This document shows, piece by piece, positions 5,757-28,753 of a DNA stretch of 64,000 nt. Location: the NCBI GenBank assembly GCA_947650285.1, contig CANTFL010001223.1:62001-126000 (forward strand), given 5' to 3'. Source of the DNA: Hyaloperonospora brassicae (Eukaryota > Oomycota > Peronosporomycetes > Peronosporales > Peronosporaceae). The first letter of the stretch is position 1. Each line of letters starts with the position of its first letter. A program made the translations under genes and the position numbers. The notes beneath the pieces were generated by a model that was not told the DNA's origin, ran no database searches, and worked only from the letters and a program-made list of their open reading frames with translations.

Positions 5757-5787
5757 ACGGGCGTGGGTTCGAATCCCACTCGTGTCA
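5757..5787 (+). pseudogene. tRNA-Leu-like T-arm and acceptor remnant
   Basis: Positions 5763-5779 form a perfect T arm (5-bp stem, loop TTCGAAT) containing a canonical B box. The sequence around it resembles the 3' half of a eukaryotic tRNA-Leu. The 5' half does not fold into D and anticodon arms that pair with the acceptor, so this is a truncated copy or SINE head. Confidence 0.35.
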
Positions 5788-9555: not shown

Positions 9556-10000
9556 TGTAATGGGGCACACCCCTTGCGTGAACTTTACGCAAGGGTGACG
9601 TGTGCCCCACAAGCGTACACAGGGCAACCGAGGAAGCGGTAGGTAAAACAGAACTCGAAAGCTCTGTCTTGATGGAAAAGTAGAACTATTTAGTTGATAT
9701 AGTTATTACGTTAATAAATCATCTTTGACTTACTCTGAATATATTAAACTATCTTCTCCTATGTGTGTCCCTTGCTCAACACCCATTGCGCGCGTCCAGC
9801 AGCGATTGGTGGTTGAGTTGATTGATGTACACCGTACATCAACCGAGAAGTGGACCCCTCCACAGACATTATCCTTAGCGATAATAATCCGACAATATCA
9901 CTCATTTCGAGTGATGTTGATTGAATATTATCAAAACAGATAATATTCAAAAATTGGTACTTTCGTACCAATTTTTATGTAACGGGATCATCCCGTTACA
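9556..10000 (-). repeat. outer 3' LTR of element A
   Basis: This 445-bp LTR begins TGTAAT and ends GTTACA. It is near-identical to 19963-20407. It contains several perfect hairpins, including a 23-nt palindrome-like terminus (9978-10000) and a GCAAGGG stem near 9571-9595. The adjoining polypurine tract on its right makes it the 3' LTR of a minus-strand element. Confidence 0.92.
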
Positions 10001-10015
10001 TCACCCCTCCCTTAA
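10001..10015 (-). promoter_or_regulatory. polypurine tract of the outer element
   Basis: On the minus strand the sequence directly before the 3' LTR reads GTTAAGGGAGGGGTGA, a typical plus-strand primer for reverse transcription. The same motif recurs at the middle LTR. Confidence 0.75.
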
Positions 10016-10133
10016 CCATCAGTCACTGAAGTGAATAATATGATTGGTTGTGACAGAGTGACTACCGTCGTGTCGCTCTGGGGACGGGGAGCACTTGTTG
10101 GTCTTTTCCTTTTTCATTTTCACTTCGCAGACT

Positions 10134-11873
10134 ATGACGATCAAGGCCGCGTCCGAAGCGGCTGCACAAATGCGTGCAGCCAGTGAACAAGACGAACAAG
10201 ATTCAGCAGCAGGTGGTTATCCGCATGCTGTTGCTGACAAAAAAGCCTGCAACTCTAGCAGTTGCAGGTTCACGTGGTCATCCACGTGCAGCTCCTTCAC
10301 CCGCAGGGTCTTCTGCGGGTGGTAGTCCGATGGACCATGGCCCCGACATAGACGTGGTCTATTCGAGCGAGTCGGACGCACCGTCCGACTAAAAATCGTC
10401 CGTTAATCTCTACCGGAAGTTCGCGGAAATGAATACTGCTGCGCCTCGCGGCAGTCTCGACAAAGAGCTGCAGTGCGATATCTTCGGTTCATCCGACGAG
10501 TTCAAGAACTCGTCACCGGGATCGAACTGATGGAGCTCGTATTTGGATGACGAAAGCGTGCAAAAAAAGGACTTAAGTCCTCATGTGGGTGTCGATGACT
10601 CTGTACGGAGTCATCGTAGCCATAGCCGTGATAGTGGTGCTGGTTACATTGGCACCACGCAAGAGGAGCAAGATTGTGATGCTTTCCGATCTGTTCCTGA
10701 GCGCAAGCCATGGTTGACAACTTTGAGAGAGCGGAGAGTGTCGTATGGTTATATCACTGGGGCTGTCAGATCCCAATCTTTAACTCATCAAAGTTCCATG
10801 GTCTTGATGTCAGTGCGAAGTATTATCTCACTAAGCATATTTTAAATCGATGTCTTTTTCAGACATCGATAGTTTCATTTCAACAAAAAGTAAGACCCTT
10901 ACTCGTTGGTGCAGGCGTGGAACGCATCCATCGCCAACATTTTGACTGCTGGTAGACAGTCTTGGCTGGGCAAACTTGGTGCTGCTCGCAGCAAGTTTGA
11001 ACAAATTCGCATGTCGGTGCACGGTATAAATTGCATCTATTGTCTCGAAAGGATGGTTTACCTTGCCTCTCGTGGATAGAGAAGTGTCTGAGTTGTGTAG
11101 ACAACTCAATTCGCGCCCCTAAGGAGGCGTACCTCCTTAATCAGCCCTACTGGAAGGCGCGCATCTCGTCTAAGATGCACGAAGGTATTGGGAATTTGCA
11201 ATCCCTTTACGACCGCGGTGATCGTTCGCACGACGATGGCCCTCCACCAACAAAGGGTGTGTCTCGTCGTACTGCTCAACGAAACCTGCCACATCCATCA
11301 TCAACTGGAATCGAGGCTCCCAGCTGTTCCAAGAGGGTGGATACCCCCGCCACTGGACGAGGTAACTCGTCCCTGATCCTTAATAGTCACGGTGGTTCAC
11401 GATACCCTCCACAAAGAAGCTTTGACCACCGCGTGAGTCCAATCAAGGATGTGGAGGAGGAGGAAAGATCTCCTCCAAGTCCTCATGCTCACCATTTCAA
11501 TCCTTACGAGATGGATCGCACTATTGTTGAATTGCGCGATGATTTGGAGCACGAGAGGGACAGGCGTTACGCTCTGACTGATTCTTTGCGGAAGCACCGC
11601 AAAGACCGCGAGACGTACCGTGCGAAGGACCGTGCTGAGTATGCGGTCGCGAAGCTGCAGACCGAGCGCGATGTCCGCTCCCTCGTGTATGAGCTGGCGA
11701 CAGCTCGCGGAGAGATCCTTGGTTTAAACGGAGAGATATCTGATGTTCGCGTCCAGGTTGAACGTCTGGAGCGCGAGTGCAAAAAACTGATGGAGGTGCT
11801 TGAACGTGGGGGCTATCTTCATCGGAAGAAGAGGGATCGTACCGGTAGTACGGAAAAAGATGCCCCACGATGA
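10134..11873 (+). pseudogene. decayed left copy of the element A antisense ORF
   Basis: This is the counterpart of the intact antisense frame at 12886-14604. An ATG at 10134 opens the N-terminal part; the frame then shifts and stops (for example 10390). The C-terminal part is open from 11031 to 11873 and has the same coiled-coil segment, rich in Arg/Glu/Asp and ending near an LERG motif. The acidic signature DxDVVYSxESD matches DPDVEVIYSGESD of the right copy. Several hairpin stems are kept by paired changes even though the reading frame is broken. Confidence 0.75.
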
Positions 11874-12030
11874 ACGTAGAATGCATGCGAATCCTTTGTG
11901 GCATCTCGATCGTGTATGCGTTGCACCATCAATTCAGCACACGAAAGGGACCGATATACTTGGGCAGTAGGTTACTTCTGCCCACGTTAGTCACTACGAG
12001 TCGAGATAGGTTTACCGTAAATAGTAAGAC

Positions 12031-12362
12031 TTAGTTGCCTACGACAAATGAATGTATATTTTCCCCTCCATTCTTGTCAGTGTTCCGTTTCTGACGGTCC
12101 ACCGCGTAAGCGATGGAATTCTGTACGAAACGGGTCGCTGCTTCGCGAGTCAGTAGAAATTTATCTGCTGACTCGGCGTTGTTTTGTTCAATTCTACTTG
12201 TGCGAATCGCAGAAAGAGTGCTTTTTTCTTTCTGTTCAGCAGCGAGGATGACACCATCCTCGCTGAGATAGTCGTTGACAATGCTGAATATACCAGCATC
12301 GTCATCATTATCTGAGTCAATAGTAGCGTTTTCACTATTATTGAGGTAATCTTCTTCGTCGA
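12031..12362 (-). pseudogene. integrase C-terminal fragment, left copy
   Basis: The minus-strand frame resembles the region just before the integrase C-terminal domain of the right copy (14374-14841), sharing FLLTREA and the VDRQKRN-D-KNG block. It is cut at 12362 by the middle LTR, whose insertion point lies in the acidic Asp-rich linker. The matching undisturbed sequence is at about 14870-14990. Confidence 0.7.
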
Positions 12363-12753
12363 TGTAACGGGGCACACCCTTGCGTAACTTAACGCAAGGG
12401 TTTTGAGTGCCCCGACAGACGTACACGTGGCAAGCGAGGAAGCGTAGGTAGGGTAAAAGTAGAACTGTTATATTAATAAATTAAGTCTTTAAACTACTGT
12501 CTCTTCGTTTGACTTAATTCAATTATACTAATATAATTGCATGTATGGTGACATCTCGTCACCACTCATTGCGCGCGTCTTGCGGCGATTGGTGGGTTGA
12601 TATCATCACGATATCAACCAATGAACAGACCCTTTGGTCGACCCTTCAATATCACCACTTTGGTGATATTGTTTTAAAGAATATCCATCTTTATATTCTT
12701 TATTGTCACTTTCCTTAAAGTGACAATTTCATGTAACGGGCTGCCCCGTTACA
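12363..12753 (-). repeat. middle LTR of element A, diverged subfamily
   Basis: This 391-bp sequence begins TGTAACGGGG and ends GTTACA and follows the same order of blocks as the outer LTRs, with many substitutions and gaps. A polypurine tract lies on its right (12754-12770), so it was the 3' LTR of a second minus-strand element. No partner 5' LTR of the same subfamily is present, which points to recombination between nested copies. Confidence 0.85.
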
Positions 12754-12770
12754 TCACCCCCCCCTTAACT
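12754..12770 (-). promoter_or_regulatory. polypurine tract of the inner element
   Basis: Minus-strand reading gives GTTAAGGGGGGGGGTGA directly before the middle LTR. It is like the tract at 10001-10015 but with an uninterrupted G run. Confidence 0.75.
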
Positions 12771-12850
12771 GATAGTCACCGTGTGACTATCGAAAACATG
12801 GAGTCCACCCGTTGGCCACCATTGGGACTGGGAGCACTTGTTCGGTCCGT

Positions 12851-12864
12851 TTCATTCACTTTCC
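12851..12864 (+). promoter_or_regulatory. oomycete initiator-like core before the antisense ORF
   Basis: TTCATTCACTTTCC resembles the oomycete initiator plus flanking core (TCATT followed by a C-A-(A/C/T)-TTT type stretch). It lies 21 bases before the ATG of the plus-strand antisense ORF, and a similar TTCATTTTCACTT precedes the left copy. This would let the frame be transcribed independently of the sense element. Inference only; no transcript is known to me. Confidence 0.4.
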
Positions 12865-12885
12865 GCTTGGCCTCGCATAGTTAAC

Positions 12886-14604
12886 ATGTCTATGCGAGGT
12901 GACTCAAGACCCACACAGCCTGGTGCTGTGCAAGCCTCTGCGGCAGACGCTTCGTCGTCTGCCGCCCCTTCTTCGCCTGCAGCAACAGGTGCTGCAGGTG
13001 CACGCGGTATCACACCGCGTGCGCACGATGACCCTGATGTAGAGGTCATCTACTCTGGCGAGTCAGACGTGTCTGACTCGGGCAATGCTCCAGAGGCGTC
13101 TCGCTTACCGGCGACGCCTCAGTATTCGCCAAGACCACTGCCGAACGAACGGACTCGTGATTTGCATCACAGTCTGTTCGGCAGTGATGATGATGATGAT
13201 CAGGGTGGTGAGTTCTATTCTTCACCACCGCCGGCTCGTGTGTCTTCGCACGAGCGTGATGACGATGGCGCGAGCCGTCGTCAATCTGGGAGCCGTGGTA
13301 CCGACAAGGGTACCACTGTGAAGCGTGATGAGTTGAAGCCGTGGCGTTTTCCCGAACAACTCATCAATAGCCTGTCTCACGAGACAGGCCAACACCATCC
13401 AATACCCTTATTCGATGCAACCGAGCTTCACGGCTTGAGTCCCAGCGCGAAGAACTTTCGCGCTGAAGAAGATTTTTATCTCGATGTCTTTCTTAGACAT
13501 CGATGGTACAACAGCAACCAAAAGCGTGACAAAACATCGCTTTTGGCTGCGTGGAACGCGTTCGTCCAAAACGTAAAGAATTTTGGACGAGAAGGGTGGC
13601 TCAAGAAACTTGAGGCAACACGCCTCAGGTTCGAACGGCGAACGCCAACCGGTGCTAGGTACCGGTTGCATTGTTTATCGAGTGAGGCAGGCATTCCTTG
13701 CCTCACATGGGGAGACCCTTGTGCGAGTTGTGTTGACAACTCGCAGCGTGCACATAGGGATGTGTACTCCCTAAATTCGCCCTGGGGAAGGGCACATCTC
13801 TCGGAGGAGATGCGTGACGCGATTGCAAACTTGCAATCCGTCTACAAGCGCCTAGGGCGCGTGTTTACCGATGGGCCACAGGACTCATCGGATGAGTCTC
13901 GTCATACTGGCGGACGAGACCTTCAACATCCATCAACAGCTGAGAGCGGGGCTCCCAGCTGTTCCAAGAGGGTGGATACCCCCGCCACTGGACGAGGTAG
14001 CTCGTTCTTGATCCTGAATCGTCACGGTGATTCAAGATACGCTCCACTAGAAAGCGTCGACCACCGTGCGAGTCCACCAAAGGATGTGGTGGAGGAGGAA
14101 AGACCTCCTCCAGATGATTCTGTTCACCATCTCGACCCTTACGAGATGGATCGCGCAATCGATGAATTGCGCGATGACTTGAAGCATAAGCGCGACCGGC
14201 GCTACGCTTTGACCGATACCGTGCGGAAGAACCGCAAGGGTCACGAGGCGGATCGGGCGAGGGATCGCGCCGATTATGCCACGGCGCAGCTTCAGGTCGA
14301 GCGGGATGTCCGCTCCCTATTCGGCGAGCTGGCGACAGCTCGCGGGGAGATATCTCGGTTGAATACCGAGGTATCATATCTGCGCGACCAGACGGATCGT
14401 CTGGAGCGCGAACGCAAGAACTTGATGGATGTTCTTGAACGTGGGGCTATCTTCATCGGAAGAAGAAGGCTCGTACTGACAGTACGACCTAAGCCTCCCC
14501 ACGTAAAACGTAGGATGCGTGCGCATCCTACGTGGCAATTCGAGTGTGTATGCATTGCCCTTGCGATGCAACACTCGAAATGGCCCAATGTATTTCGGCA
14601 GTAG
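12886..14604 (+). CDS. antisense ORF of element A: acidic, coiled-coil protein
   Basis: A 572-codon open frame on the strand opposite gag-pol, between the middle LTR and the integrase core. Starting at ATG 12886 it has an Ala/Ser-rich N terminus, an acidic stretch with DPDVEVIYSGESD (about residues 46-58), Asp-runs near residue 100, a central conserved-looking domain (about 160-320), and a long charged coiled coil (about 415-525) of Arg/Glu/Asp heptads. The sense strand over the same bases encodes the integrase tail and chromodomain in two different frames, whereas this frame is unbroken. The ORF begins next to the LTR, as antisense genes of some retroelements and retroviruses do. Function unknown; DNA- or RNA-associated coiled-coil protein is a guess. 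A start further upstream in the same frame lacks ATG. Confidence 0.55.
   Translation: MSMRGDSRPTQPGAVQASAADASSSAAPSSPAATGAAGARGITPRAHDDPDVEVIYSGESDVSDSGNAPEASRLPATPQYSPRPLPNERTRDLHHSLFGSDDDDDQGGEFYSSPPPARVSSHERDDDGASRRQSGSRGTDKGTTVKRDELKPWRFPEQLINSLSHETGQHHPIPLFDATELHGLSPSAKNFRAEEDFYLDVFLRHRWYNSNQKRDKTSLLAAWNAFVQNVKNFGREGWLKKLEATRLRFERRTPTGARYRLHCLSSEAGIPCLTWGDPCASCVDNSQRAHRDVYSLNSPWGRAHLSEEMRDAIANLQSVYKRLGRVFTDGPQDSSDESRHTGGRDLQHPSTAESGAPSCSKRVDTPATGRGSSFLILNRHGDSRYAPLESVDHRASPPKDVVEEERPPPDDSVHHLDPYEMDRAIDELRDDLKHKRDRRYALTDTVRKNRKGHEADRARDRADYATAQLQVERDVRSLFGELATARGEISRLNTEVSYLRDQTDRLERERKNLMDVLERGAIFIGRRRLVLTVRPKPPHVKRRMRAHPTWQFECVCIALAMQHSKWPNVFRQ
13865..14377 (-). pseudogene. chromodomain-bearing C terminus of element A pol
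   Basis: The minus-strand frame contains a recognisable chromodomain (FLVERILNHRDD, YLVQWRGYPPSWNSWEP) in its C-terminal half after a basic, proline-rich linker. Chromodomains of this type direct integration of chromoviruses to chromatin marks. It is in a different frame from the preceding integrase tail (frames overlap by four bases near 14374), so it needs a frameshift to be part of pol or has been separated by an indel. It lies wholly opposite the intact antisense ORF. Confidence 0.75.
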
Positions 14605-17600
14605 TTTGCTACTGCCGACACTAGTGACTGCATGTCCAGGTAAGTTTACCGTTGACAGTAGTACTAGGTCGTTAACCTTAAATAAAAGAATATTTGCTCT
14701 TCCATTCTTGTCTTCGTTCCGTTTCTGACGGTCCACCGCATTTGCGATGGAGTCCTGAACGAAAGGGACTACCGCTTCTCGAGTCAGCAGGAAGTTCTCT
14801 GCTGACTCTTTGTTTTGTCTGGCAGTGCGCTTCGTGCGCACTGCTAAGAGATTGCTCTCTTCTTCAGCGAGGTTGTCTTCTTCCTCGATGACATAATCGT
14901 TGGCGATGCTGAATATACCAGCATCGTCATCATCATCCGAATCAATAATAGCGTCTTCGCTATTATTGAGATGATCTTCTTCATCGATGTCGACTTGATC
15001 GACATCGGCATCATACGTGACGACGTTTGCGTCGACACGTGATGAGCAAGAGCCAAAACGGTTTTTGCTCGAGCGAGTCCCTCCCCCCTTATATAAGAGT
15101 TACACTCTATAAGGGTGGGCACTCGTGGATGGCGTAGGCCATTCACGTTAAACGGTGTGTGCTGTGTTGAAGCATGCACCGAATTATTGATGGCGAATTC
15201 CACCATGGGTAGGAATTCGCTCCAACTCGGAAACGAGTGGACATATCCTCGAAGAATCTCTTCGAGGACACGGTTCGCACGTTCCGTCTGACCATCTGTT
15301 TCTGGATGGTCAGAAGTGGACATCTTCAATCGTGTTCCGAGAGTACGGAACACGGTTTGCCAAAATTCCGCCGTGAACCGAGGGTCACGGTAGGATACGA
15401 GTTCACGGGGTAACCCGTGGAGTCTAAAGACCGTGTCTAGAAAGACACGAGCACAACCTTGAGCCTTGATTGACTCAGGGACAGCAGCAAGATGGACCAT
15501 CTTGCTGAATCGGTCTACAAACACAAGAATACCATTATTCTTGTGAGCGTCTTCGGGAAACCCGAAGACGAAGTCCATTGAAACGGACTGCCAGCACTCT
15601 GCCGGAACAGGCAGAGGCTGCAATGGCGCACGGGATGAAGGACTAGGCTTCACCCGTTGACAAACTTCGCAAGCACGTATATACTTGCGAACAAACTGAT
15701 ACTGGCGGGGCCAGTAAAAGTCACGACTTACCGTGAGGTAAGTCTTTTCCCTTCCACGATGGCCGCTTGTTGGGGCATCGTGACACTCGTACATGATGCG
15801 CAACCGCAAATCATGATGAGCGGGTACGACTACACGAGGCGTGTCGTCGGCAACGGCTGTATAGTACAGCAATCCGTTGCGCGTACTATACCGATCCGAT
15901 GAGGATCGGTACAAAGCCGGTAAATCCCTCATGGATTTACTGGATGGATTTACCAGATGATCCATCAATCGCAGAAGATCCTTATCTTCCGCGTATGCCT
16001 TTTGTACGTCGTCAAGTAAACTTGACGACGGGACACTGACTGACAGTGTCGCAACAGTGGGCTTATCCTCACTGTTGGATTGTGCGTCCGGCTCGAAATC
16101 GGGCCGGCGCGAAAGAGCATCCGCGACGACATTGAGTCGTCCCGGTTTATGCTCCACGGAGAAGTTATACTCCGCGAAGAAAGACAGCCACCTCGCCATT
16201 CTTTGCGAGAGGTGTGGGCTGTTTACGGCCGTGCGTAATGACGCATGGTCCGTGTAGACAACAAACGGTCTATCTCCCAAGAGATAGACGCGAAACTTAG
16301 CCAGTGCGTATTTCATGGCAAGGATTTCATTGTCATGCACTGGGTAATTACGCTCAGCTGCTTGCAGCTGACGCGACTGATAACAGATGACGCGCTCCGC
16401 GCCATCTGCATCGGACTGCATTAACGCACAGCCGATTGTAAAATCGCTGGCGTCACAGACCACATGAAATGGTATGTCCTGATCTGCAATCGCCAGGATC
16501 GGCGACTGCATCAAGCTTTTCTTGATACCTTCAAAGGAACGCTGGCACTCAGCGTTCCATGACCACTTGACATTTTTCTTGAGCTACCAAGAAAGATGTA
16601 CCGTCATCTCGGCGTAGTTGCACGAGTACTTGTGCAAGTACGCCGCAAGACCAAGGAACTTCCTTAGTCCCTCGACATCGACTGGCAATGACCAGTCGGT
16701 GATCGCCTTGATCTTTTCGGGATCCGGGCGTACGCCATGTTTACCCAAGATGCACCCAAGAAGTGGTATTTCGCTAGCCGCAAATATACACTTCTTGAGG
16801 TTGGCGTACAACTTATGCTTGCGCATAAGTTGAAGAACCTGACGAACGTGAGTTCTGTGAACTTCAACGTCCGTCTTTCCGTCCATAGCCCGGCTATGGA
16901 CGAACACATCGTCGAAATAACTCGGTGCGAAGTCTCGCACCGGTCTCAACAGATTTGTAACACATCTGTTGAATGTTGCAGGGGCATTACTCAGCCCCTG
17001 TGGCATCACTAGCCACTCCCACAGCATCCCGCTGGGGGTACTCACTGCCGTGAACGGGACGTCCCGTTCACGCATCGGGATCTGATAGAATCCATCCATC
17101 AGATCCATGGACGAAAAGATGGTACTCTTTGACATACCATCTATGATTACGTCCTTCCTCGGTATCGGCGTCTGAGCCGGTACCGTTGCAGCATTCAACT
17201 TGTTGAATGCGTGCACTATCCGCCACCCATCTGTGGCCTTTCGCACACAGAAGGTCGGAGAGCTGTGAGGGGATGTTGATTCCCTCACATGGCCCGCTGC
17301 TAAGCGATCGGCAAAGAACTTGTCGATCGCTAGTACTTGTTCACGAGGCAGTGGCCACTGCTTCATGACACAGTATTTCGAGCCCGGTTTGAGCTCGATC
17401 TCGTATCGAGTGCCTTTGTCCTTAGGCAACTCGCAAGGTACGAATTCAGGGAACACATCCCTGAATTCGATCAAATCCTTATACAAAGGATTTGCCTGAA
17501 GTGACTCCCAGGATTGAGACGTGTATCGCCCAATCCGAGTCTTCTCATCGAGGACACTTTCGTCCATCGATGAGCTGCTGAGAACCCGTTCGTTCTCAGC

Positions 17601-18824
17601 AAATACTGTTGCCGACCGAATGTCGGTCACATACTCGTCCTCTGTGACGAGTATGCAGATCTGCTTGACTTTGCCACTACGCAGATCACGCAAGAACCGT
17701 TTCGGTTCTAGCTTTGGCAACTGAGTTATCTCCGAAGTTAACTTCGGAGGCACAATCAGATCAAGCGTATAAGCGCCTACGCTTGATCCGTCATTAAGCA
17801 AGACGTTCAACGTCTCGGTTTCTTCCTGGGAGCTTGCTTCCACAGGTTGCTGAGGTCCTAATCCCTCAGCAAGCGACTCTTGAGGAATTCCTTCCTCAAG
17901 TACGTGGGGACTTATTCCCTCGACGTCTTCCGACTGTGGCTGTGCAACCACAGTCAGGAACCGATCCTCTACGGTCGACTCTCCAGTCGACCTAGGATTT
18001 TCATGTTGCCCCTTGGGGGCAACAGACTTCTTTCTTCTAAGATGCTGCCCGCTAGGCATGCATCCATGTCCCGGTCCACTCGACTTATTCGAGTAATGCA
18101 CCTTCGGTGCTGCCTGTACCTCTGTACAGCCGCCGGGAGCTTGCTTCACAGTGTAGTGATCATGTACACTATGATCTTGTGCAGTCGTGCTAACGACCGT
18201 ACCGCAAGTGCGGTCATCGCACTCACTCGCAGTACGTCCACACGCTTGTGGATTCTCCAAGATGTTCATCATTTGGCCATCTGATGAACAAGCAGCAGGC
18301 ATCTTCACGGATCGATGCTGCCAGCTCACTCTTGGCTCGTATTTTCTGAGCCAAGGCAATCCCAGGATGACATCAAATTTGTCATCCAGATCCAGTACGA
18401 TGAAGTCATCATCGTACTGTTCGCCCTCCAACGTGTAGTGAATTCCTACTACACGCTTCTCAACGGTAATCGATGCGCCTGTTGCAAGGCGCACCGTCAT
18501 CCTCGTGAGGGGAATGTCGCGCTCAACGAACTTGAGACTAAGACCCTCTAGTGACTGGCTTCGAACAAAGTTATTCGACCCCCCACAGTCTACTAGGGCA
18601 CGAAGCGACAAATCATTTGTCGCTTCCGACTTCAAGGTGATGAGCGAAACGTCATCACCAGGTGCAGCGACACACAATGATGGTGTGTCTGGAGCAACTT
18701 TCGTCAAGAGATTTGCAAATTCTCTTGAGGTTGCTGGATCAGTAGGGCGCTCCGCCCCTACTGATCCCGTCCATTTTTTGATGGTCCTCTCCGCTGTTGC
18801 CGTTTCGCAACAGCGCTGGACCAA
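14374..18824 (-). pseudogene. pol: element A pol: protease, RT, RNase H, integrase (broken)
   Basis: The protease region has D-C-G at residue 79 of the first frame instead of D-S/T-G. RT carries the YFDD catalytic box (about residue 636) and FYQIPM/LGLPWL-type motifs. An in-frame TAG at 16586-16584 separates RT from RNase H (DASDFTIG, DHASLRT) and integrase, which continue in the same frame. Integrase has the zinc-binding H...H and CEVC pairs and the first Asp (SMDFV). The second catalytic Asp is replaced by Tyr (S-Y-R-D, codon 15392-15390), which should abolish strand transfer. The C-terminal domain (14374-14841) is in a further frame. The sequence is packed with short inverted repeats. It is a dead copy that could move only in trans. 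Confidence 0.88.
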
Positions 18825-18832
18825 CGCCTATT

Positions 18833-19914
18833 TCAACTTTTGGCAAAAGGTCGTCCATTTCGCTCAATACTGTTTGGTACTGGGCGTGGAGCACTACACT
18901 CGTATGCGTAGTGTCTTAACTTCTGACAGCGATTGCACTTCTGCAATCGCTTGTTATTTGAAGAGTGATGTATCTCGCTCTCAACATAGCAGAGGTCCAT
19001 TGGGTCTGGACCTCCGGAATCTTGTCGTCTTGGCGGACGATATGAGTTTGAGCTAGCATGAGCCTGTCTCATGCTTAAGTCTTCCTCTTCCGCGGCTGAT
19101 ATCGCATCTTCCATCGTATTCAGCTCAAGGCGGAACAGGTGGCTCCTGACGGGCCCTTCTACGAGCCCTTGCATGAACACCGTAATAAACGTGTGTTCAT
19201 GGACTGGGTTAGCAGTTATACTACTCGCGATGAGTCTTATATGTTGGGAGTAAGTGTGAACATCACCCTTACCCTGCTTGAGTTTAAATACCTCTGAACG
19301 AGCTCTGAACTCTGCTCTTGGCGGCTCAAACCTACGTTTGAGCCGTGTTTTGAAGAATTTTGGAGACTCAAAAGTATATAAGTCGCTCATGTACAGCCCT
19401 AAGGCCCAAGTCTTGGCACGTCCCGCCAATTGGGATTGAGAAAATGTTAATTTCATTTGCTCATCGTCGACACGACGTGCCTTTATGAATCTGTCGATTT
19501 CGACGAACCATAACAACAGGGAGTCTTCCTCGACTCCTCTGTACTTGAAAATATCAACCTTCACGATTTCGGGACGACGCGCATGCGCGTCGTCCCGCCC
19601 ACAGCAGCATTAAGTAGCTGCTGTCTCAACAGCTCAGTCTGTTGAGCACCGTATTCTCTCAACTTCTCGGCCTGTTGAGAGCCTTGCTGGTAGAGCAAGG
19701 CTACTTTCTCCCGTTCGGTAGCAAGTTCATATTGAATGAACCTGACGATGGAGGCATGCTGTTGGTCTCTGTTAAAAGACTCCAACATATCGGTAATACC
19801 AATTTTGCTCACAAAAGAGCTTATTCGCCCTACCGCGACCCATTCGAGATCACTCAAATGAGCAAAGCCTTCACTCGTCGCGTGAAGCCTTTCTCCCTCA
19901 TCCATCATGTTCAT
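18833..19914 (-). pseudogene. gag: element A gag, frameshifted
   Basis: ATG at 19914 opens an N-terminal matrix/capsid-like segment that stops at 19561. The capsid (Retrotrans_gag-like WAL, FKxRLKRRF, VHTYSQ motifs) continues in a different frame to 18833 and has no ATG of its own, so a one-base frameshift near 19590 has split the gene. The C terminus has a zinc knuckle C-x2-C-x4-H-x4-C (CNRCQKLRHYAYEC), with Arg where Gly is usual. Pol follows in another frame nine bases downstream. Confidence 0.85.
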
Positions 19915-19940
19915 GATGAATGAGATTCTTCGTCGCTGGA

Positions 19941-19962
19941 AGGACTACAAAGTGCTATCAGG
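19941..19962 (-). promoter_or_regulatory. putative primer-binding region of element A
   Basis: Directly inside the 5' LTR the minus strand reads CCTGATAGCACTTTGTAG. It is not the common initiator-Met site (TGGTATCAGAGC). The corresponding place in element B reads CTTGGTAGCACTCG, which shares the GATAGCACT/GGTAGCACT core, so both families may use the same unidentified tRNA. Confidence 0.4.
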
Positions 19963-20407
19963 TGTAACAGGGCACACCCCTTGCGTGAAATTTACGCAAG
20001 GGTGACGTGTTCCCTACAAGCGTACACAGGGCAACCGAGGAAGCGGTAGGTAAAACAGAACTCGAAAGCTCTGTCTTGATGGAAAAGTAGAACTATTTAG
20101 TTGATATAGTTATTACGTTAATAAATCATCTTTGACTTACTCTGAATATATTAAACTATCTTCTCCTATGTGTGTCCCTTGCTCAACACCCATTGCGCGC
20201 GTCCAGCAGCGATTGGTGGTTGAGTTGATTGATGTACACCGTACATCAACCGAGAAGTGGACCCCTCCACAGACATTATCCTTAGCGATAATAATCCAAC
20301 AATATCACTCATTTCGAGTGATGTTGATTGAATATTATCAAAACAGATAATATTCAAAAATTGGTACTTTCGTACCAATTTTTATGTAACGGGCTCACCC
20401 CGTTACA
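19963..20407 (-). repeat. 5' LTR of element A
   Basis: 445 bp, TGTAAC to GTTACA, same length as 9556-10000 and about 98% identical by eye (differences cluster in the first 60 bases and the terminal palindrome). Perfect stems include the ATTGGTAC/GTACCAAT pair near 20358-20381 and the GAATATTATC pair near 20329-20354. Confidence 0.92.
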
Positions 20408-20412
20408 CCGTT
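20408..20412 (+). repeat. target-site duplication CCGTT, right copy
   Basis: Exact match to 9551-9555; marks the right junction of element A. Confidence 0.88.
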
Positions 20413-21065
20413 GGCATGTCTTTCGCGCCAGACGTACTTTGCTATCGAACGCGACCGCCATGAATGCTCGTCGAGAAGATGTTGCAGCGGGTATATCGAT
20501 TTCTGCAATCTGGTTATCAGCGTCTTGATACACGACTGCCTCCCTTAACGCATGTGTCATTGCAGATATGAGAAATGGGCGCGCAACGGCAATAGGTTTC
20601 CGAAGGCAAAAGATAACGGGTGTGGCTTTTGTGACTTCTGGTAGGAGTGAGTACTCATGGAAGGCTTAAATCTGAGTGGATAAGCTGTGGTCCAAAGTAG
20701 CACAAAGGAGGATTTATTGAATCACCAATCGGCAAACAACAGAGTAGCAACATGAACGGAATGCTTCGTCGTACGACTAGTACGTTAATGCTGTTGTTGG
20801 TGTTCGAAGAAGGTATCGAATTGAGTGGATTGTTGTCAGGTCTCTGGCCGTATCGGTACCAATTCCGTCTAAAAATGATGATTGAAGTCCAGCAGGCGAT
20901 AGAAGAAGCAGTACGGTGTGAAGCGAAGGAGATGTCAATCTCGAATGGTAGAACGATTGGCTACGAAGCAGGTTGTTTGTAGGTAAGACTATAATTTTGG
21001 TAATATACTCAATCTGCAACAACATTTCTTATCGACATTCCTACCCTGTTTAATTGGTTGGTATT
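20413..21065. other. 650-bp spacer between elements A and B
   Basis: Host or old repeat DNA continuing from 9550. A 76-codon plus-strand frame at 20752-20982 (ATG start, hydrophobic near the N terminus, AIEEAV and CEAKEMS stretch) might be an eroded gag fragment; no family was recognised. The last five bases, GTATT (21061-21065), are the likely left target duplication of element B. Confidence 0.4.
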
Positions 21066-21585
21066 TGTAACGGGCCACACGTCGGATGGTAGTCGACGGT
21101 AGTTGTGGTGCACACAAGAGAGGGGTACCCTATAAAGTAATTTTAGAACACAGTGAGTGTATCAATTGTTGAAGACTGATGTCTGTCATCAATTGATTAC
21201 GAGATCTTTTAAGAGGTTATTTAGGGCAGATTAAATACGTTGTTCTAAGGTGTTCTTTTAGGTTTAACAAAAAAAATTCAGTTCCCCTTTTGATCAATAA
21301 GAGACACGTGCCTTACGAGGCGTCTTCGATCGGGAGGACGAAAGCAACGCCTGTAAAGGTAGCTTGTCCTCGAGCACTCTGTGCTGTGATTCTTTTGAAT
21401 CGTCTGGTCCCTCAGGAACGAGGACCGTAAGCTCTCTGAGCTTGTTGACTCTCTGAGTCGGGTTCTCTGAACCAAACCTTAGCTCTCTGAGCTGTTGACT
21501 CTCTGAGTCGGGTTCGTAGAGCCAAATTTGCTCGTGAGAGCGTTAAGTCTTCCTCTGACTTAAGGAGCTGTGCAGCTCCGCTACA
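21066..21585 (+). repeat. 5' LTR of element B
   Basis: Begins TGTAACGGG and ends CGCTACA. It contains a CTATAAAG TATA-like sequence near 21131 and the micro-hairpin array at 21429-21523. Confidence 0.92.
21429..21523 (+). repeat. array of six tri-loop micro-hairpins in the element B LTR
   Basis: Six consecutive palindromes have 5-6-bp arms and a 3-nt loop: 21429-21443, 21447-21459, 21461-21473, 21481-21493, 21497-21509 and 21511-21523. The first five share the loop TCT (for example GACTC-TCT-GAGTC and GGTTC-TCT-GAACC); the sixth has loop GTA. The array is preserved in the 3' LTR at 28592-28685. It lies in the probable R/U5 part of the LTR and could fold in the RNA. Confidence 0.75.
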
Positions 21586-21605
21586 CTTGGTAGCACTCGT
21601 ACTCA
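21586..21605 (+). promoter_or_regulatory. putative primer-binding region of element B
   Basis: Immediately after the 5' LTR the sequence CTTGGTAGCACTCGTACTC resembles the equivalent site of element A. The priming tRNA was not identified. Confidence 0.4.
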
Positions 21606-21638
21606 ATCTTTATCTGAGTCGGTAACGACTGATCCTCT

Positions 21639-22678
21639 GTGAGGATGGAGCAATCCACACCCCTCTCGGATGCCCAAAAAGTCGCGCTTGATAAGCTAAA
21701 TGCGGCCGTAGGCCCAGAGTATGTGGCGTTTCTAGCTGCACAATGTCCCGATGTGCTCAATGCACGAGTCGAAATCTTCATGCAGTACGAAACGGCCCTG
21801 TTAGGGCTGTTTCGAAACCAAGTAGCGTCGGCTATGCCGACACGCTACGTGGCAATGCCACCAGAAGAGGCAAAGCCTCGTCCCCTTCGAGTGGACGTTA
21901 AACATTACTCCGGGAAGGAGGGTGAAACCTTACCCTCTGGATCCGTAAGATTGAGATGGCCATGAGCTCTGATCTTATCTCACTGGAGTACCGGCGGGTC
22001 TCGCTGGCTATCTCCAAGCTCGATGGAAGAGCTAGATAGTGGACCCTGACGTGCGGCACGCCGGTCGTCTTGGCGTTTCCCACATGGGATTCTATCAAGC
22101 TAGACCTATTGCGAGTTTTCTCGCCGCCCAACCAGGCATATCGCGTGCGCTCACGCTTCTTGTCTACCCGTCAGGGTAAGAACGAGTTAACGGGCTATGT
22201 TCAGGAGTTGAGAACTCTGATGGCTGCCATGCACTCCGACCCTCTCCCTGAGACTGTCTACGTGACAGTCTTCATGGAAGGTCTTCGCACTGGCGTTGCC
22301 AGGACCGAGGTCTTTCGAGTCCATCGCTCGACTTTTGAGGAAGCTGTGAGCATCGCTCAGAATGCTGAGCATAACTTTAAGTCAGCAAGACTTGGTTGGA
22401 ATGGGTACAACCCAAGCTATGCGAGGACAACCTCAGCAAATAGCCCAGATTACTGTAAGCCCGAACCGATGGATCTCAGCAATGCTGAAGATGAAGGTGA
22501 AGCGGAGCTTCATGTTGCCGAGCAACGACAGGAGGTGAGACGCTGTTACATGTGCGGAAGCACTAAACATTTGCGTCCCACTTGTCTTTTGTGTAAGCAA
22601 CGACCGACTCCTACGGGTCGAAACCTCAGCCTCAACCAGAGACCTGGAATAGCACGGGGAAACGTCGACACCCAGTAG
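21639..22678 (+). pseudogene. gag: element B gag, frameshift plus nonsense
   Basis: The N-terminal part starts near 21642 and runs in one frame to 21965. Homology to the capsid continues one frame over (LWIRKIEMAM-type stretch) from about 21940, so a single-base indel lies near 21935. A TAG at 22037-22039 then interrupts the second frame. After it, capsid (VFMEGLRTG) and a zinc knuckle CYMCGSTKHLRPTC (C-x2-C-x4-H-x4-C) are intact to the stop at 22678. Confidence 0.85.
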
Positions 22679-22764
22679 GCGCGGGGCGGCCTACTGGGGT
22701 AGAACATAGTTCTGTCACTTCTCTACGAGGTAGAGCAACACAGAGCTTAGCCTCACAGAGCTCC

Positions 22765-25700
22765 GTGCCAGCAAGCACAGAGCGTGGATACAAGCCAGGC
22801 TTGTTAGTCGCTGAGGCGATAGTTAAAGGCTTTGAGAAGCACTGGTCGATATTAATCGATTTTGGGGCGTCATGCAACTATGCTAGATGCCGTTCCCTTG
22901 AGGGGAGTCAGCAATATGCTGAGGTGCTCAAAGCGCACGACGGTGATTCCATCACTGTTCGGTTAGCGACGGGTAGTCGCGTTACTGTTCCTAGTGTTCC
23001 GTTGATCTTGGGCGTGAAGTTTTTGGACTTTGATAGCACAGAACACTGTCTCGTCCTTGACTTGGATTCGAGATACGATCTCATCCTAGGCATGGCATGG
23101 CTTGAACGCCATGAACCATGGATCGATTGGAAATCTAGGAACTTACGCGCCACGCGCAATGTTCCTAGAGAAGCTTTGGAGAGTCATGAACCCACCTTTG
23201 CTAGGCAACAAAAGCACTATTGGCGCGAGCCATTGACGGAAGATGTCAATGTGCTGGACATTGGTATGTCGGAGCTAACTAGCTCGAATGTCTATGACAT
23301 GAATATTCAGCGGAGCTCTTCTAATGTGTTTGAAGAGGGGTGTACTCCGTTGAGTGATATTCGTTGTGATAATGAGTCACTGCATGCGTCAAGCATGGTT
23401 GGCCTACGAGCGGGACATACAATAAGTAATTTCCATGATTTTATTGCGGTGGCACGTGAAATTACACAGAGTGAGGGCGGCCGTGATGGCACCTCACTGA
23501 ATGTCGATAATGACATTGTTGGCAAACAGCCAGAGCATTCAGGGCAAAGCCCACTTAATGCAAGTGAAGTGGTATGTGTTAATCCACTGGGTGAAGTGTT
23601 TGAGTTACATAACTCCCCACCAGATGTCGTTCAAGACATGAGCTCTTGTATAGAGCGTTCTAAGACAATTAGCAACTACAGGGACCCTACTGTCCCAAAT
23701 TTTGAGAAGCGTAATGGGTCTACGACCGGTCAGTTCCGACGCCCGGTGGCAGCTGATGAGCGCCCCACGTCAGACACGTCCCATAGTGATAAAAGCAACA
23801 ATATACTATACACACTTGTTAATTGAGTAACTGGTCATGTTGATGGTAATATCCGTCTTGCAACTCTTCCGTCTGTGGACGCTCTCTTCAAATTGGACGA
23901 AATGTCTGATGGCGACTTTAGCCAAGCCTTACAGGCCGGAGAATTATCCGATCTAGTGTTCATTCGACCCTATGCAGAGTTGAGTTCTTCCTCGTTATTG
24001 GACGAATCCGTCCTCGAGGACACAAAGGCGTCATTAAGTGCACGTAGTGGATCTGCGATCCTTAAAGATCCGCTGGATCCTTTTTATCCTTTGGTAAAAG
24101 AATTTCAAGACGTGGTGTGCCACGACCCGCCGTCTGCCTTACCTCCTGACAGAGGTGTGCGTCACGAAATTGACTTGATTTCTGGAACTAAATACTGCGT
24201 AACACGGCAGTGGCCTTTTCCAAAATAGCAGTGTGATGTCATAGACGACTTCTTTCGTGCAAAGCACGCAGCGGGCATGGTTCGTGAGAGCAAATCTCCT
24301 CATTTCACGCCCACATTTTGTGTCCGAAAACCCAATGGAAAGTGGCGCATTGTTCATGCTTACAATAAGCTTAATGCTGACACAATCCCGGCTCAGACGC
24401 CAATCCCTCGGAAAGATGTTCTTCAGATCAATATGGTGGGATGCTTAATGTACAGTGCACTCGATTTAGTCGATGGTTATTACCAATTACTCATGCGTGA
24501 GAAAGATATCCCGCTAACAGCGGTTAGTAATCCGAGCGGTATGCTCTGGGAGTGGCTAGTTATGCCACCGGGCTTGTCAAACGCGCCAGCTACGTTCAAT
24601 CGTCTTATGACGCAACTGTTTCGGCCTCACCGAGGTTATGCACAGACCTACTTTGATGACATCTTTGTCCATAGTCGTGCTATGAACGGCCGGTCTGATG
24701 TGGATAATCACATCGACCATTTAAGAGCAGTGCTCGAGTGCATGCGCACAAACAAGTTGTATGCCAACGCCTCTAAGTGCATCTTTGGTGCACAAGAGAT
24801 TCCCTTTTTAGGGTGCTTCATTGGGAAGCGTGGTCTTAGGGCGGATCCCGCTAAGATAAAAGCCATAGTTGATTGGCCGGTTCCTAAGAACCAAAAGGAC
24901 TTACGTAAGTGGCTTGGTCTTGCCAATTACTTACACAAGTAAAGTGCGAACTATGCGGACATGGCTCGGCCATTATCCAATCTCCTTAAAAAGGATGTGG
25001 AATGGTGTTGGACTAACACTGAGCATGAAGCCTTTACGGCTGTTAAAGAGAGTCTTCTTCATGCGCCAATCTTGGCTTTGCCCGATCCTGATCGATCTTT
25101 TAGTGTCGTCTGTGACGCATCTGACTTTGCCATCGGCAGTGCTCTGTTACAAACAGATAATGATGGACGGGAACGCGTCATTGCGTTTGAGTCCCGGCAG
25201 CTAAAAGCTGCGGAGAAGAACTATCCTGTTCATGACAAAGAGCTACTTGCAATGAAGTATGCTTTAGTTAAGTCCAGAGTTCATCTGCTTGGCTCTAAGC
25301 CTTTTGTTATCGATACAGATCATGCGTCACTACGCACTGCAACCCAGTCGCCACATCTCTCTCAGCGAATGGCTCGTTGGCTCTCATTCTTTGCGGAATA
25401 CAACATTAAGGTGAAGTATAAGCCCGGTAAGCAGAATGCTTTGGCTGATGCGTTGTCACGCAGGCCTGAATATGATCTTGGTCATGTTACGACTCTGTCG
25501 TCATCGGTCACAGACCTCATTCGTTCGGCATATGCCAAAGATGAACATTGTGTAGCTTTGCTACGTGCTCTGTGGAGCGAGGAGTTTAACGACTCAGACA
25601 TTAGATTGTCGGCACGTTTACGTGCGAGGCTACATCGATATTCCATCGATCAAGGCCTGTTGTGCTATAGCACAGATAAGGAGGATACTCCCCGTATCGT

Positions 25701-27310
25701 TGTCCCTCATGATGAGGAACTGAAGTATCGCATCCTCTATGAGGCGCGTGATCCTGCGGTGAGCAATCATCTCGGTCGAGAAAAGACATATAGCTCCGTG
25801 AGCCAATACGATTGGTGTCCTAAACTTTACGAATAGGTAAGCACATACGTGCGTACGTGCGAAACGTGTCAACGGTTAAAACCCTCAGCTCATGCGGCTG
25901 CGCCGCTCGCTAGTGTCCCTATACCCTCTGAGTGCTGGGAGTCCATCAGCATGGATTTCATGTTCGGTCTGCCGAAAGATGTGCAAGGCAATACGGGTAT
26001 TGTGGTCTTTGTTGACCGTTTGAGCAAGATGGCTCACTTGGCGGCTGCGCCAGATACTATTGATGTTGAAGGTACAGCTACGCTGTTTATTGATCGAGTG
26101 TTTCGACAACACCGCTTGCCTGTGGCAATTGTCTCTGACCGAGACCCTCGCTTCACTGGGAAGTTTTAAAAGTCCATCTTCAAGGTGCTCGGCACACGTT
26201 TGGACATGTCCACGGCGGATAATCCGCAGACAGATGGTCAAACCGAGCGAGTCAATCTCGTTATCGGTGACATATTACGCAATGTTTACGCTAATACATC
26301 AAAACGTTGGAGTTCGATGCTCCCTGTTGTTGATTTTGCGTTGAATAATGCTGTTCACGCCTCTACTGGCTTTACTCCGTTCTACGTGAACGGTCTCACA
26401 CACCCTCGCGTTCCGTTAACGCTACCACTGCGTGGTTCAGGGCTTGTCGGAGGAGAGATGGCCGATAGGCTTGCTGGTATCAGCCCTGCTACTGTTCAGA
26501 AACAGGTAAGCTAGTTTCTCGCAGCGCGCTTGAATGTGTTACGACACGTACGTGATGCACTGGCTGATAGCCAAGACAAACAAAAGGAACAAGCTGATGC
26601 TAAAGGCAGAGGTTGCATTGAAAGTTATAAGGTCGGAGGCCAAGTCCTACTCAATGCTAAAAACCTACCAACAAATGTAGTGTCTGCCGTCTTCAAGACA
26701 AAGTTGCGTCTGCGCTTCATTGGGCCATTCACGGTCATTGCTAAGAAGGGATTGGCGTACACGCTCAACCTTCCGCGCAAACTGCGCACGCACCCAGTGT
26801 TCTACGTTGGATTACTCAAGCCGTATCGGGACCCGTCCCATGTGAACTCGGAGGCGCTTGCGCCGGGTAATAGGGCCTTGCCTTCGGCTGTTGCATCCGA
26901 GCCAGGAGGTCAAGCTGACCATCCACACGGGCTAAGGCCAACTCCAATGCTTAAACACGGGCTTGCACCGCGTCGAGCGCACTCTGGGTCTTACCCAATG
27001 TCTCTTGGAGGCCACTTAGCTCACGGAGCACCTTCTCATGCTCTTCCTTCGGTACCCCGACCACCACCGACGCTGCTCGATGAGCAAGGTACCCACCAGT
27101 TCCATTTGGAGAAAATCCTTCAGCGACGTCGTCGTCGTGGCCAATACCAGTATCTGGTGAAGTGGCGAGGGTACCCGGAGTCGGAGAACTAGTGGGAGTA
27201 TGAGATACCCCTTCGGCAGGACTGCCCTTACGCCGTGGATGTTTTTGAACATCGTGGTCAGGGTCGCATTGCGAACGAGAACGCTTCTCACCAATAGTGG
27301 TGGGAGGTGG
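22765..27310 (+). pseudogene. pol: element B pol with seven in-frame stops
   Basis: One continuous frame carries protease (D-F-G-A-S at the active site, unusual for D-S/T-G), RT (LDLVDGYYQ, YFDD), RNase H (DASDFAIG, DHASLRT), integrase (CETCQRLK zinc pair, SMDF, an intact V-S-D-R-D, DGQTERVN), an SH3-like C-terminal domain and a chromodomain (YLVKWRGYPESEN). Stops lie at 23824, 24226, 24940, 25834, 26167, 26512 and 27190 (first bases). At most of them element A has Trp, Tyr, Glu, Ser or Leu, so they arose by substitution. No frameshift is visible over 4.4 kb. Confidence 0.9.
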
Positions 27311-28117
27311 CGTGTTGCTCCGCACCTAAGGGTCGTGACCCGTGATTGCCATTGTAGCCGGAGCATAACGAGTACGTGTACGCAACTGGCCCCTGGCCTT
27401 GAGCTTGGCATACTCGAACCGGAGCTTTCGTTCTAAAAGAACGTCAGCCACATCGGCGCTGGCCCGCAGCGTTGGCACACTGCTAAGGTGCCGCTTGCGG
27501 TACACCCAACGGATGAACTGATTGTCCTCCTCCTCGGGTAGTTCGCCAGCGAACAACAAGATGGGCACGCCCTTTATCGGTCGAACTGAAACTCCATGAG
27601 AGAGACTCTCAAGGTGTGCCAGGTACTGACCTTGCGTGGTAAAGAATGGTTCGAGATACCTCTCATGTAGAACCTTACGGAATGCAATTTCTTCCGGTGA
27701 CGTAGCCTCTGGTGCAATTGCCCATGTTGCGAGGCTACGGCCTTCCGTTTGACGGAGACGTTGCTCCACGTCAGGTGTTGCAAACACGTAACCACTCCGG
27801 TTCTGAACAACCGCCTGGGTATGAGTGCGATGTAGAGCACGCTCCTTACTCTGACGGATCAGCTGCTGTTGCTCGTCGAGCGGGTTCGTGATGATGTTCT
27901 CATCTGCATCTGTTGTATGATGCTGCGCCACTGGCGCGGTCGTATCACCACGTTCAACGAATGGATTCGATGCTGTAAGAGGACTAGCCTCAGGTACAGC
28001 GGAGTTGGACTATATCCCGTCATCTCCATGGACACTGGTATCACTACCATAGTCCATATCCTCATCGAAGCCGAGGTAAGAGGAAAGAGTCCGAGACTCG
28101 TTGGGTGGCAATGCCAT
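26951..28117 (-). pseudogene. antisense ORF of element B, two nonsense codons
   Basis: On the strand opposite pol, an ATG at 28117 (MALPPNESRTL) opens a 388-codon frame interrupted only by TAG at 28012-28010 and TAG at 27328-27326. It covers the region between the chromodomain and the 3' LTR and overlaps the chromodomain in antisense. The middle part has an ordered look (RSGYVFATPDVEQRLRQTEG, FIRWVYRKRHL). The C terminus is a heptad-type coiled coil (VPKEEHEKVLRELSGLQETL). It shows no clear sequence similarity to the element A antisense ORF but has the same position, strand and C-terminal coiled coil. Function unknown. Confidence 0.6.
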
Positions 28118-28210
28118 GGTGTTTCGTGTTTAGCAACCGTAAGGTTAAGCACACACACACACACCAACATCTTCGAGGAAAAAGCCGATTGACGTTTGTG
28201 GTAATGTCAG

Positions 28211-28225
28211 TCTGGAGGGGGAGGG
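28211..28225 (+). promoter_or_regulatory. polypurine tract of element B
   Basis: TCTGGAGGGGGAGGG directly precedes the 3' LTR, as expected for the plus-strand primer. Confidence 0.8.
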
Positions 28226-28748: not shown

Positions 28749-28753
28749 GTATC

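What the first reader, a model, noticed from the sequence alone, without database searches (positions are those of the whole stretch)
9556..20407. Element A is almost entirely a chain of short perfect inverted repeats
Reading the element base by base, a perfect hairpin-forming palindrome occurs about every 20-40 bases in LTRs, gag, pol and the antisense ORF. In 13327-13920 I count 14 perfect stems, 12 of them with arms of 8-10 bp and loops of 1-21 n (e.g. 13370-13378/13381-13389, 13562-13571/13581-13590, 13723-13731/13736-13744); uniform random sequence predicts about 0.2 of that class. Pol examples: 17759-17769/17778-17788 (11 bp) and 18394-18403/18409-18418 (10 bp). Flanking host DNA and element B pol do not show this density by eye. 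One possible cause is quasi-palindrome correction: reverse transcriptase or polymerase switching template within a strand and converting near-palindromes to perfect ones. Another is selection for RNA structure.
Basis: partly seen in the sequence, partly recalled or inferred. Interest (0 to 1): 0.92.

Follow-up and report, generated by a model that had tools for sequence, protein, structure and literature searches.

The report
Retrotransposon built of conserved tiny hairpins
A jumping gene in this genome is, along almost its whole length, a string of short self-complementary hairpins kept by evolution, so that both of its strands are predicted to fold unusually tightly, which may help it hide from its host.

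Summary
Element A (9556-20407, a chromodomain-bearing Ty3/gypsy retrotransposon, sense strand minus) has 131 perfect stems (arm >=8, loop 1-25) against 3.7 in dinucleotide shuffles, in all 12 parts tested; synonymous shuffles of one copy's pol piece give 1.2 against 39. Related families C and D are enriched too, and element B is a chain of 5-bp stems with mostly 3-nt loops. Folding energy exceeds shuffles by 40-50% on both strands of A and its sister A', against 23-31% in three RNA phages and a 15% genome mean published for SARS-CoV-2.

A', 18% diverged, keeps the hairpins: arms differ 8%, loops 27%, the rest 22%, with pair-restoring double changes (7 against 0-1 in slid controls). Arms are conserved outside the known ORFs too. 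Neutral quasi-palindrome correction predicts arms as divergent as flanks, by double change. Best reading: selected genome-scale ordered structure on both strands, perhaps shielding transcripts from duplex formation. Conservation is shown; molecule and purpose are inferred. The searches that ran (6 of 12) showed no report of such chains in retrotransposons.

The parts
9556..20407 (-). Element A: LTR retrotransposon (Ty3/gypsy, chromodomain-bearing); hairpin chain of mostly 8-10 bp stems over its length
   Evidence: 131 stems against 3.7 expected; domains; LTR pair
19963..20407 (-). 5' LTR (sense orientation), 5 stems of arm >=8
   Evidence: 98.2% identical to 9556-10000; densities
9556..10000 (-). 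3' LTR, 5 stems of arm >=8
18833..19564 (-). gag (Retrotrans_gag, one zinc knuckle motif), 5 stems
   Evidence: PF03732; CCHC pattern (recalled motif) found
16584..18824 (-). protease and reverse transcriptase part of pol, 33 stems
   Evidence: PF00078, PF08284
14844..16514 (-). RNase H and integrase part of pol, 22 stems
   Evidence: PF17917, PF17921 and, slightly below its cut-off, PF00665
13865..14841 (-). integrase C-terminal SH3-like domain and chromodomain
   Evidence: PF24626, PF00385
12838..14604 (+). Antisense ORF; protein-level purifying selection tested in 12838-13860; the open frame of other A copies read begins a little downstream of 12838
   Evidence: pN/pS 0.39 A against A', no stops in A', other frames 0.46-1.44; copies
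13327..13920 (.).
12448..12837 (.). Stretch outside pol and antisense ORF where arms are conserved (10/136 against 64/249 changed)
11234..12365 (.). Diverged duplicate (76%) of 13869-14990, with partly different hairpins (5 of arm >=8)
17759..17788 (.). example pol stem, 11 bp, loop 8
18394..18418 (.). example pol stem, 10 bp, loop 5
20408..29000 (+). Element B: chromodomain-bearing Ty3/gypsy element with a chain of 5-bp stems and mostly 3- to 5-nt loops

Best explanation
Element A and its relatives carry a genome-scale ordered structure: selection keeps nearly the whole element folded into consecutive short hairpins. SHOWN: the hairpins exceed chance at given protein sequence and codon use; they are local (125 of 131 loops at most 15 nt) and lie in coding and other parts; they are conserved, with compensatory changes, between subfamilies A and A'; positions are not shared between A and C or D, so pairing itself rather than a given site seems selected; stem length and loop are typical of each family (A 8-10 bp, C 7-9, B 5 bp with mostly a 3-nt loop); both strands are predicted to fold about equally well. 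INFERRED: the folding molecules are the genomic RNA and its complement (antisense transcript or cDNA). Perfect Watson-Crick stems serve both strands at once, while G-U serves one. Because A, B and C each have an antisense reading frame between pol and the 3' end, sense and antisense RNA probably coexist; self-folding would slow their annealing into long double-stranded RNA and cover targets of small RNAs, while arms of at most 13 bp stay short. Confidence: about 0.85 that selected local structure is the cause, about 0.35 that the both-strand shield is its purpose.
For: Excess over dinucleotide and synonymous shuffles. A against A' (82% identical): 14 of 30 stems perfect in both, arms 43/538 changed against loops 49/183 and other 198/893; by my own arithmetic about 3 of 30 would survive if ancestral stems simply decayed. 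Double WC-WC changes 7 against 1.1 expected from arm rates (P 2e-4), reverse 5 against 1.0 (P 0.004); slid controls 0-1. Conservation outside known ORFs, at synonymous sites in pol copies and in the antisense ORF (pS 0.197 in arms, 0.350 outside). Element B: arms 5.4-6.1%, loops 14-16%, other 10.5-11.5% diverged in 6 ordered comparisons. Excess folding energy (MFED) A 44-50%, A' 40-48%, C 16%, D 8-9%, B 10-16%, host about -1%. Antisense ORFs: A under selection, B kept open in many copies, C open for at least 347 aa, selection not tested.
Against: No transcript, small-RNA or probing data. Arms in A sit more often in poorly conserved protein regions (mean identity to relatives 0.56 against 0.66 in RT, 0.44 against 0.63 in integrase), which a mutational process would also give. 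Against a null built from non-stem pairs the double changes are not in excess (7 and 5 against 6.4 and 6.7 expected). One of 6 young-copy comparisons (L008) shows no arm conservation overall and a higher nonsynonymous rate in arms. Strand symmetry says little about the molecule: RNA phages MS2, Qbeta and PP7 show no significant G-U preference in the same test. Conservation is conditioned on stems perfect in the reference; either reference gives the same result, but the noncoding stretch alone is only moderately below a rate halved for that bias (10 of 136 against about 17, my arithmetic). On the young C branch the net gain of stems is weak (130 of 400 random placements reach the arm >=7 count, 19 of 400 the arm >=8 count). 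An antisense ORF goes with very different hairpin strength in A and B, and D was not examined for one.
Confidence: 0.5

Rival explanations
1. Quasi-palindrome correction: the element's reverse transcriptase folds back on its own product and turns near-palindromes into perfect ones; hairpins are a mutational by-product without function.
For: Perfect stems, short loops, strand symmetry; family-specific geometry could mirror each enzyme; stem-perfecting substitutions (3 of 3 in arms on the young C branch, all in the 3' arm; 11 single A-specific changes from imperfect pairs); some stems rebuilt by clustered changes.
Against: Unbiased neutral correction leaves the arm substitution rate unchanged and gives almost only double changes. 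Observed in 12448-12837: 1 double and 8 single of 68 pairs, arms 7.4% against 25.7% elsewhere; over the whole compared piece 7 double WC, 2 double non-WC, 24 single of 268 pairs. A-specific changes are rarer in arms (18/291) than elsewhere (loops 10/94, other 85/734). Which arm is perfected shows no stable bias over.
Confidence: 0.15
2. Dispersed packaging or assembly signals: Gag of each family binds hairpins of a given geometry spread along its RNA.
For: Each family has its own stem length, loop and closing-pair bias: B CG 76 against GC 27, C GC 24 against CG 7.
Against: No shared loop motif seen: A loops run from 1 to 23 nt with varied sequences; symmetry between strands is not needed; Gag has an ordinary zinc knuckle motif.
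Confidence: 0.2
3. Hairpins act in the single-stranded cDNA during reverse transcription, or in DNA, rather than in RNA.
For: Strand symmetry and Watson-Crick perfection; stems continue through LTR and both coding strands.
Against: No sequence feature found here points to the DNA stage; loops are A-rich on the sense strand of A, if anything an RNA-like sign.
Confidence: 0.12
4. Chance, base composition, codon bias or assembly artefact.
For: None found.
Against: Two kinds of shuffle. 40 scored places in 35 contigs, the window's own included, match a 201-nt query at 97-100%. Of 7 other places read (L002-L008), 5 compared stem by stem keep 33-43 of 49 stems perfect, L007 has 47 stems of arm >=8, and L004 is A only in its last two thirds, where the stems are.
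Confidence: 0.01

Closest known systems
Genome-scale ordered RNA structure (GORS) of positive-strand RNA viruses (coronaviruses, HCV, pegivirus)
   Same: Raised folding energy along the genome; hundreds of unbranched consecutive stem-loops; paired sites less diverse; pairings rarely shared between relatives; paired runs above 14 bp avoided (PMC7642675, abstract and passages).
   Different: An LTR retrotransposon inside a host genome; mean MFED 40-50% here against genome means of 15% for SARS-CoV-2 and 23.4%, given there as the highest recorded, though single SARS-CoV-2 windows peak above 50%; arm lengths peak at 8-10 bp with perfect pairing; many pairings conserved between subfamilies A and A'.
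Both-strand structure of single-stranded RNA phages (MS2, Qbeta, PP7)
   Same: Both strands fold: MFED 26-31% sense, 23-29% antisense. MS2 strands that anneal become a dead end for replication (PMC6847885 and PMC8956599, passages).
   Different: Excess over shuffles in phage arms falls off steadily from 4 bp; A has a separate mode at 8-10 bp and B at 5.
Quasipalindrome-associated template-switch mutation
   Same: Makes near-palindromes perfect or more perfect (PMC7202029, abstract and passages).
   Different: A local mutational event; does not by itself give low arm divergence.
LTR retrotransposons with antisense ORFs between pol and 3' LTR (Retand, Grande, RIRE2)
   Same: Position and orientation of an antisense ORF (PMC11963269, abstract and passages).
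   Different: A term search of that paper for 'hairpin' found none; no Pfam domain in A's antisense ORF at E <= 0.001.
Chronos, chromodomain-bearing LTR retrotransposons of oomycetes
   Same: Chromodomain after integrase (PMC5348765, abstract and passages).
   Different: Chronos has a second, plant-like RNase H domain; no such domain was reported in A. RT phylogeny not tested. A term search of that paper for 'hairpin' and 'antisense' found none.

Membership tests
GORS | Folding energy raised over dinucleotide-preserving shuffles along the genome (MFED above 3%, threshold from passages of PMC3950689) | tested here: met
   A 44-50%, A' 40-48%, B 10-16%, C 16%, D 8-9%, means over 350-nt windows
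GORS | Consecutive local stem-loops with duplexes of limited length | tested here: met
   131 stems, longest arm 13 bp, 125 loops at most 15 nt
GORS | Paired sites less variable | tested here: met
   (5 of 6 comparisons)
GORS | Pairings rarely shared between relatives | tested here: inconclusive
   A shares 0 pairs with C or D, C and D (70% identical) share 34 pairs, but A and A' (82%) share many: 235 of 268 pairs unchanged
GORS | Carrier is a positive-strand RNA virus | tested here: not met
   Element is an integrated LTR retrotransposon
GORS | Structure shields RNA from host sensors | not testable with these tools
   needs experiments
Ty3/gypsy element with chromodomain | LTRs, gag, PR, RT, RNase H, integrase, chromodomain in this order | tested here: met
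   integrase core PF00665 slightly below its cut-off
Chromovirus clade | RT groups with chromoviruses in a tree | not tested
   no tree built
Neutral quasi-palindrome correction | Arms evolve as fast as flanks and by paired changes | tested here: not met
Neutral quasi-palindrome correction | Perfecting of one fixed arm (strand bias) | tested here: inconclusive
   All 3 in the 3' arm on the C branch, mixed
Strand-specific RNA folding | G-U pairs favoured over A-C in the folding strand | tested here: inconclusive
   A 29 against 30; B 97 against 67 (expected 59 and 48, P 0.35); single B copies L034 P 0.004 and L041 P 0.03; RNA phages not significant

The most novel reading that the evidence does not exclude
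Chromodomain-bearing Ty3/gypsy families of this genome each carry a hairpin code of their own (A 8-10 bp stems, C 7-9, B 5 bp with a 3-nt loop), written over protein genes on both strands, which keeps sense and antisense RNA folded apart and so protects an element with overlapping opposite genes from double-stranded RNA and silencing; the stem length would be set by what each family must evade or bind.
Probability: 0.3. Interest if true: 0.93.

Novelty: new variant of a known kind. Interest (0 to 1): 0.83.

Why it matters
It puts genome-scale ordered structure, known to me from RNA viruses, into an integrated retrotransposon, at a mean strength above the three RNA phages computed here and the published virus means that I saw, with a family-specific stem length. 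It makes testable whether transposons use folding to avoid double-stranded RNA and silencing, and offers a natural set (A, A', B, C, D in one genome) in which protein, strand and geometry vary. It also shows that a third layer of information can run through overlapping genes on both strands.

Tried and rejected
Absence of G-U preference was first read as proof against RNA folding; dropped after the same test on three RNA phages also gave no significant preference. A G-U excess at the flanks of B stems (outer 45 against 23) shrank to P 0.27 with a shuffle control. Frame-wise counts that seemed to show strand preference in A', C, D and B shrank when each dyad centre was counted once (A' any-mismatch P 0.009 from 7 centres; B copies L034 and L041 P 0.004 and 0.03, whole window B 0.35), so I draw nothing from them. 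Loop inversion, a possible sign of template switching: 1 of 28 loops. Even spacing of hairpins: not more regular than random placement. Antisense ORF as sufficient cause: B has one but only 5-bp hairpins. Host rows printed 0.00 on both strands, looked odd, and were recomputed. Pfam at E <= 0.001 and a PDB search of the antisense ORF gave nothing useful; a laxer Pfam search did not run. Other transposon kinds as controls were not found among 10 ORFs tested, of at least 60 listed, from the host samples. No close relative in viral contigs. Identity of the host was not established; a WRKY19-type zinc finger in L014 hints at an oomycete, from recall only.

Literature: searches that ran were made; searches that failed or timed out were 19, 24, 31, 33, 34, 47. 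The listings that came back named no paper on hairpin chains in retrotransposons, judged by titles and the starts of abstracts. Of PMC3950689, PMC7642675, PMC11963269, PMC6847885, PMC8956599, PMC7202029 and PMC5348765 I saw abstract starts in listings and passages found by term, none in full.
Full report
WHAT IS THERE. Element A is a Ty3/gypsy LTR retrotransposon on the minus strand: LTRs 19963-20407 and 9556-10000 (98.2% identical), gag, protease-RT, RNase H-integrase, SH3-like and chromodomain, and a 3' part of about 4 kb with a plus-strand ORF from 12838 and a 76% identical duplicate of the pol end. The window lies in an unnamed 100.56 Mb genome; a 201-nt query found 40 scored places at 97-100%, the window's own included, and the first 341 codons of the antisense ORF 118 scored matches, both lower bounds.

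131 perfect stems (arm >=8, loop 1-25) against 3.7 +- 1.9; 43 against 0.12 for arm >=10; element B and host near chance in this class. The excess fades beyond loops of about 25. Shuffling synonymous codons gives 1.23 stems against 39 in an intact pol piece (L006), 0.70 against 22 in RNase H-integrase, 0.70 against 12 in family C and 0.78 against 8 in family D; two B pieces have none. In 20 host stretches of 10 kb, kb bins with 5 or more stems occur in 6; five of these overlap A-family DNA and one (L019) does not and was not followed.

IT IS A FAMILY OF PHENOMENA. Among 20 integrase loci that I chose from a 150-row list, 1 is A-like (25 stems >=8 in 2.2 kb), 2 are family C (12 each), 3 are family D (8, 8, 6) and 14 are family B (13 with none, one with 1). 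A shares no base pair with C or D; C and D, 70% identical, share 34 pairs. Arm lengths show a ruler: in A (12001-20407, loops 2-13) 7 bp 22, 8 bp 34, 9 bp 30, 10 bp 23, with expectations of 3.7, 1.0, 0.3 and 0.0. Element B has 153 five-bp stems against 56, 36 six-bp against 15, and no clear excess from 7 bp up (4 against 3.9; 8 bp 1, 10 bp 1); its commonest loop is 3 nt (61 against 5.9; 4 nt 25, 5 nt 22). Five of the 14 B copies were tested and show the same (45-51 five-bp stems against 13-14 in 2.2 kb). Closing pairs differ: B C-G 76 against G-C 27; C G-C 24 against C-G 7; A no strong bias.

THE HAIRPINS ARE KEPT BY SELECTION. Between young A copies the pol arms differ less than loops or the rest in 5 of 6 comparisons with L006 and equally in one (L008); synonymous divergence is lower in arms in all 6 (0.005-0.044 against 0.017-0.091), nonsynonymous divergence in 5 of 6. 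The best contrast is A against the sister subfamily A' (L060-L062): 18% divergence, 30 and 31 stems, 14 and 16 of them perfect in both; arms 43/538, loops 49/183, other 198/893. Doubly changed pairs that stay Watson-Crick: 7 against 1.13 expected from arm rates (P 2e-4), reverse 5 against 1.03 (P 0.004); partners slid by 1-3 columns give 0 or 1. Against a null from non-stem pairs the doubles are not in excess (6.4 and 6.7 expected), because non-stem sites diverge faster; what sets stems apart there is the lack of single changes (24 against 89). In 12448-12837, outside pol and antisense ORF, arms 10/136 and the rest 64/249 (P 6e-6; reverse 12/135 and 62/250, P 1e-4). Element B: arms about 6%, loops 14-16%, rest 10.5-11.5% in 6 ordered comparisons. 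Ascertainment (stems perfect in the reference) can halve arm divergence; it does not explain 14 of 30 stems perfect in both lineages.

WHY NOT NEUTRAL CORRECTION. If template switching merely copied one arm to the other, each mutation would be reverted or doubled, so arms would diverge like flanks, by doubles. Roughly a quarter of the 68 pairs in 12448-12837 should then have changed on both sides; 1 did, and in the reverse direction 3 of 69, one of them Watson-Crick. Events of that kind may still feed the process: stems rebuilt in place with indels (at 966, at 850), and 3 of 3 arm substitutions on the young C branch making pairs (46 differences fixed between 3 young and 5 older copies; 6.7 in arms expected; a further copy, c788, left out as too decayed). 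Against this, 3 of the same 46 fall in arms of the older copy c817 and 1 in arms of c188, and the net stem gain is weak.

WHICH MOLECULE. Predicted folding is similar on both strands: MFED sense/antisense 48/44% (window A), 48/50% (L006), 40/48% (A'), 16/16% (C), 9/8% (D), 10/16% (B), host -0.6/-1.6%. Three RNA phages give 26-31% sense and 23-29% antisense. One-mismatch centres do not favour G-U in A (29 against 30); since RNA phages also do not significantly, this does not exclude RNA. A is, however, more strictly perfect: excess of perfect centres about 109 and of G-U centres about 26 at 8 pairs, against 26 and 20 at 7 pairs in the phages.

ANTISENSE GENE. In 12838-13860 the plus-strand frame has pN/pS 0.39 between A and A' without stops in A', the other frames 0.46-1.44. 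In the A copies read, the open frame begins slightly downstream of 12838, and 116 of 118 matches carry a stop in the aligned stretch, so the window's frame is longer at its start. B has an antisense ORF without significant similarity to it (best E 0.23), with an open frame of 437-442 aa in many of the 150 scored copies. C has one open for at least 347 aa, selection not tested.

MECHANISM. I read the chain as genome-scale ordered structure in a retrotransposon. Its most likely use is keeping sense and antisense RNA folded, so that they neither anneal nor offer targets; MS2 papers report that annealed strands are a dead end for replication (passages). This last step is inference. Packaging signals and a role in cDNA remain open.

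KNOWN AND NEW. The GORS paper seen here reports genome means up to 23.4% MFED, single windows above 50%, and consecutive stem-loops that avoid paired runs above 14 bp (passages). The searches that ran named no such structure in LTR retrotransposons, but 6 of 12 literature searches failed (listed in Tried and rejected), so novelty is provisional.

Noticed in passing
20408-29000 and L031, L034, L037, L041, L045: Element B is a chain of 5-bp stems with mostly 3-nt loops, conserved between the copies compared, with C-G closing pairs preferred.
   Followed up: yes
12838-14604 (+): Antisense ORF of element A is under purifying selection (tested in 12838-13860) and has no Pfam match at E <= 0.001 and no convincing PDB match.
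   Followed up: partly
27326-27931 (-): Element B has its own antisense ORF, part of an open frame of about 440 aa in many copies.
   Followed up: partly
11234-12365: Duplicate of the pol end (13869-14990) at 76% identity with partly different hairpins, apparently from a relative rather than a recent copy.
   Followed up: partly
L019:1001-2000: Seven stems of arm >=8 in one kb of AT-rich DNA without match to A or B.
   Followed up: no
12001-20407, sense strand: Hairpin loops of A are A-rich and C-poor on the sense strand (0.32 A, 0.19 C against 0.26 and 0.24 overall).
   Followed up: no
5624-5765 (-) and 6518-6590 (-): Signal recognition particle RNA and a tRNA gene to the left of element A.
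   Followed up: no
L006, L008: Gag and pol open frames overlap in different frames on the sense strand, suggesting frameshifting.
   Followed up: no
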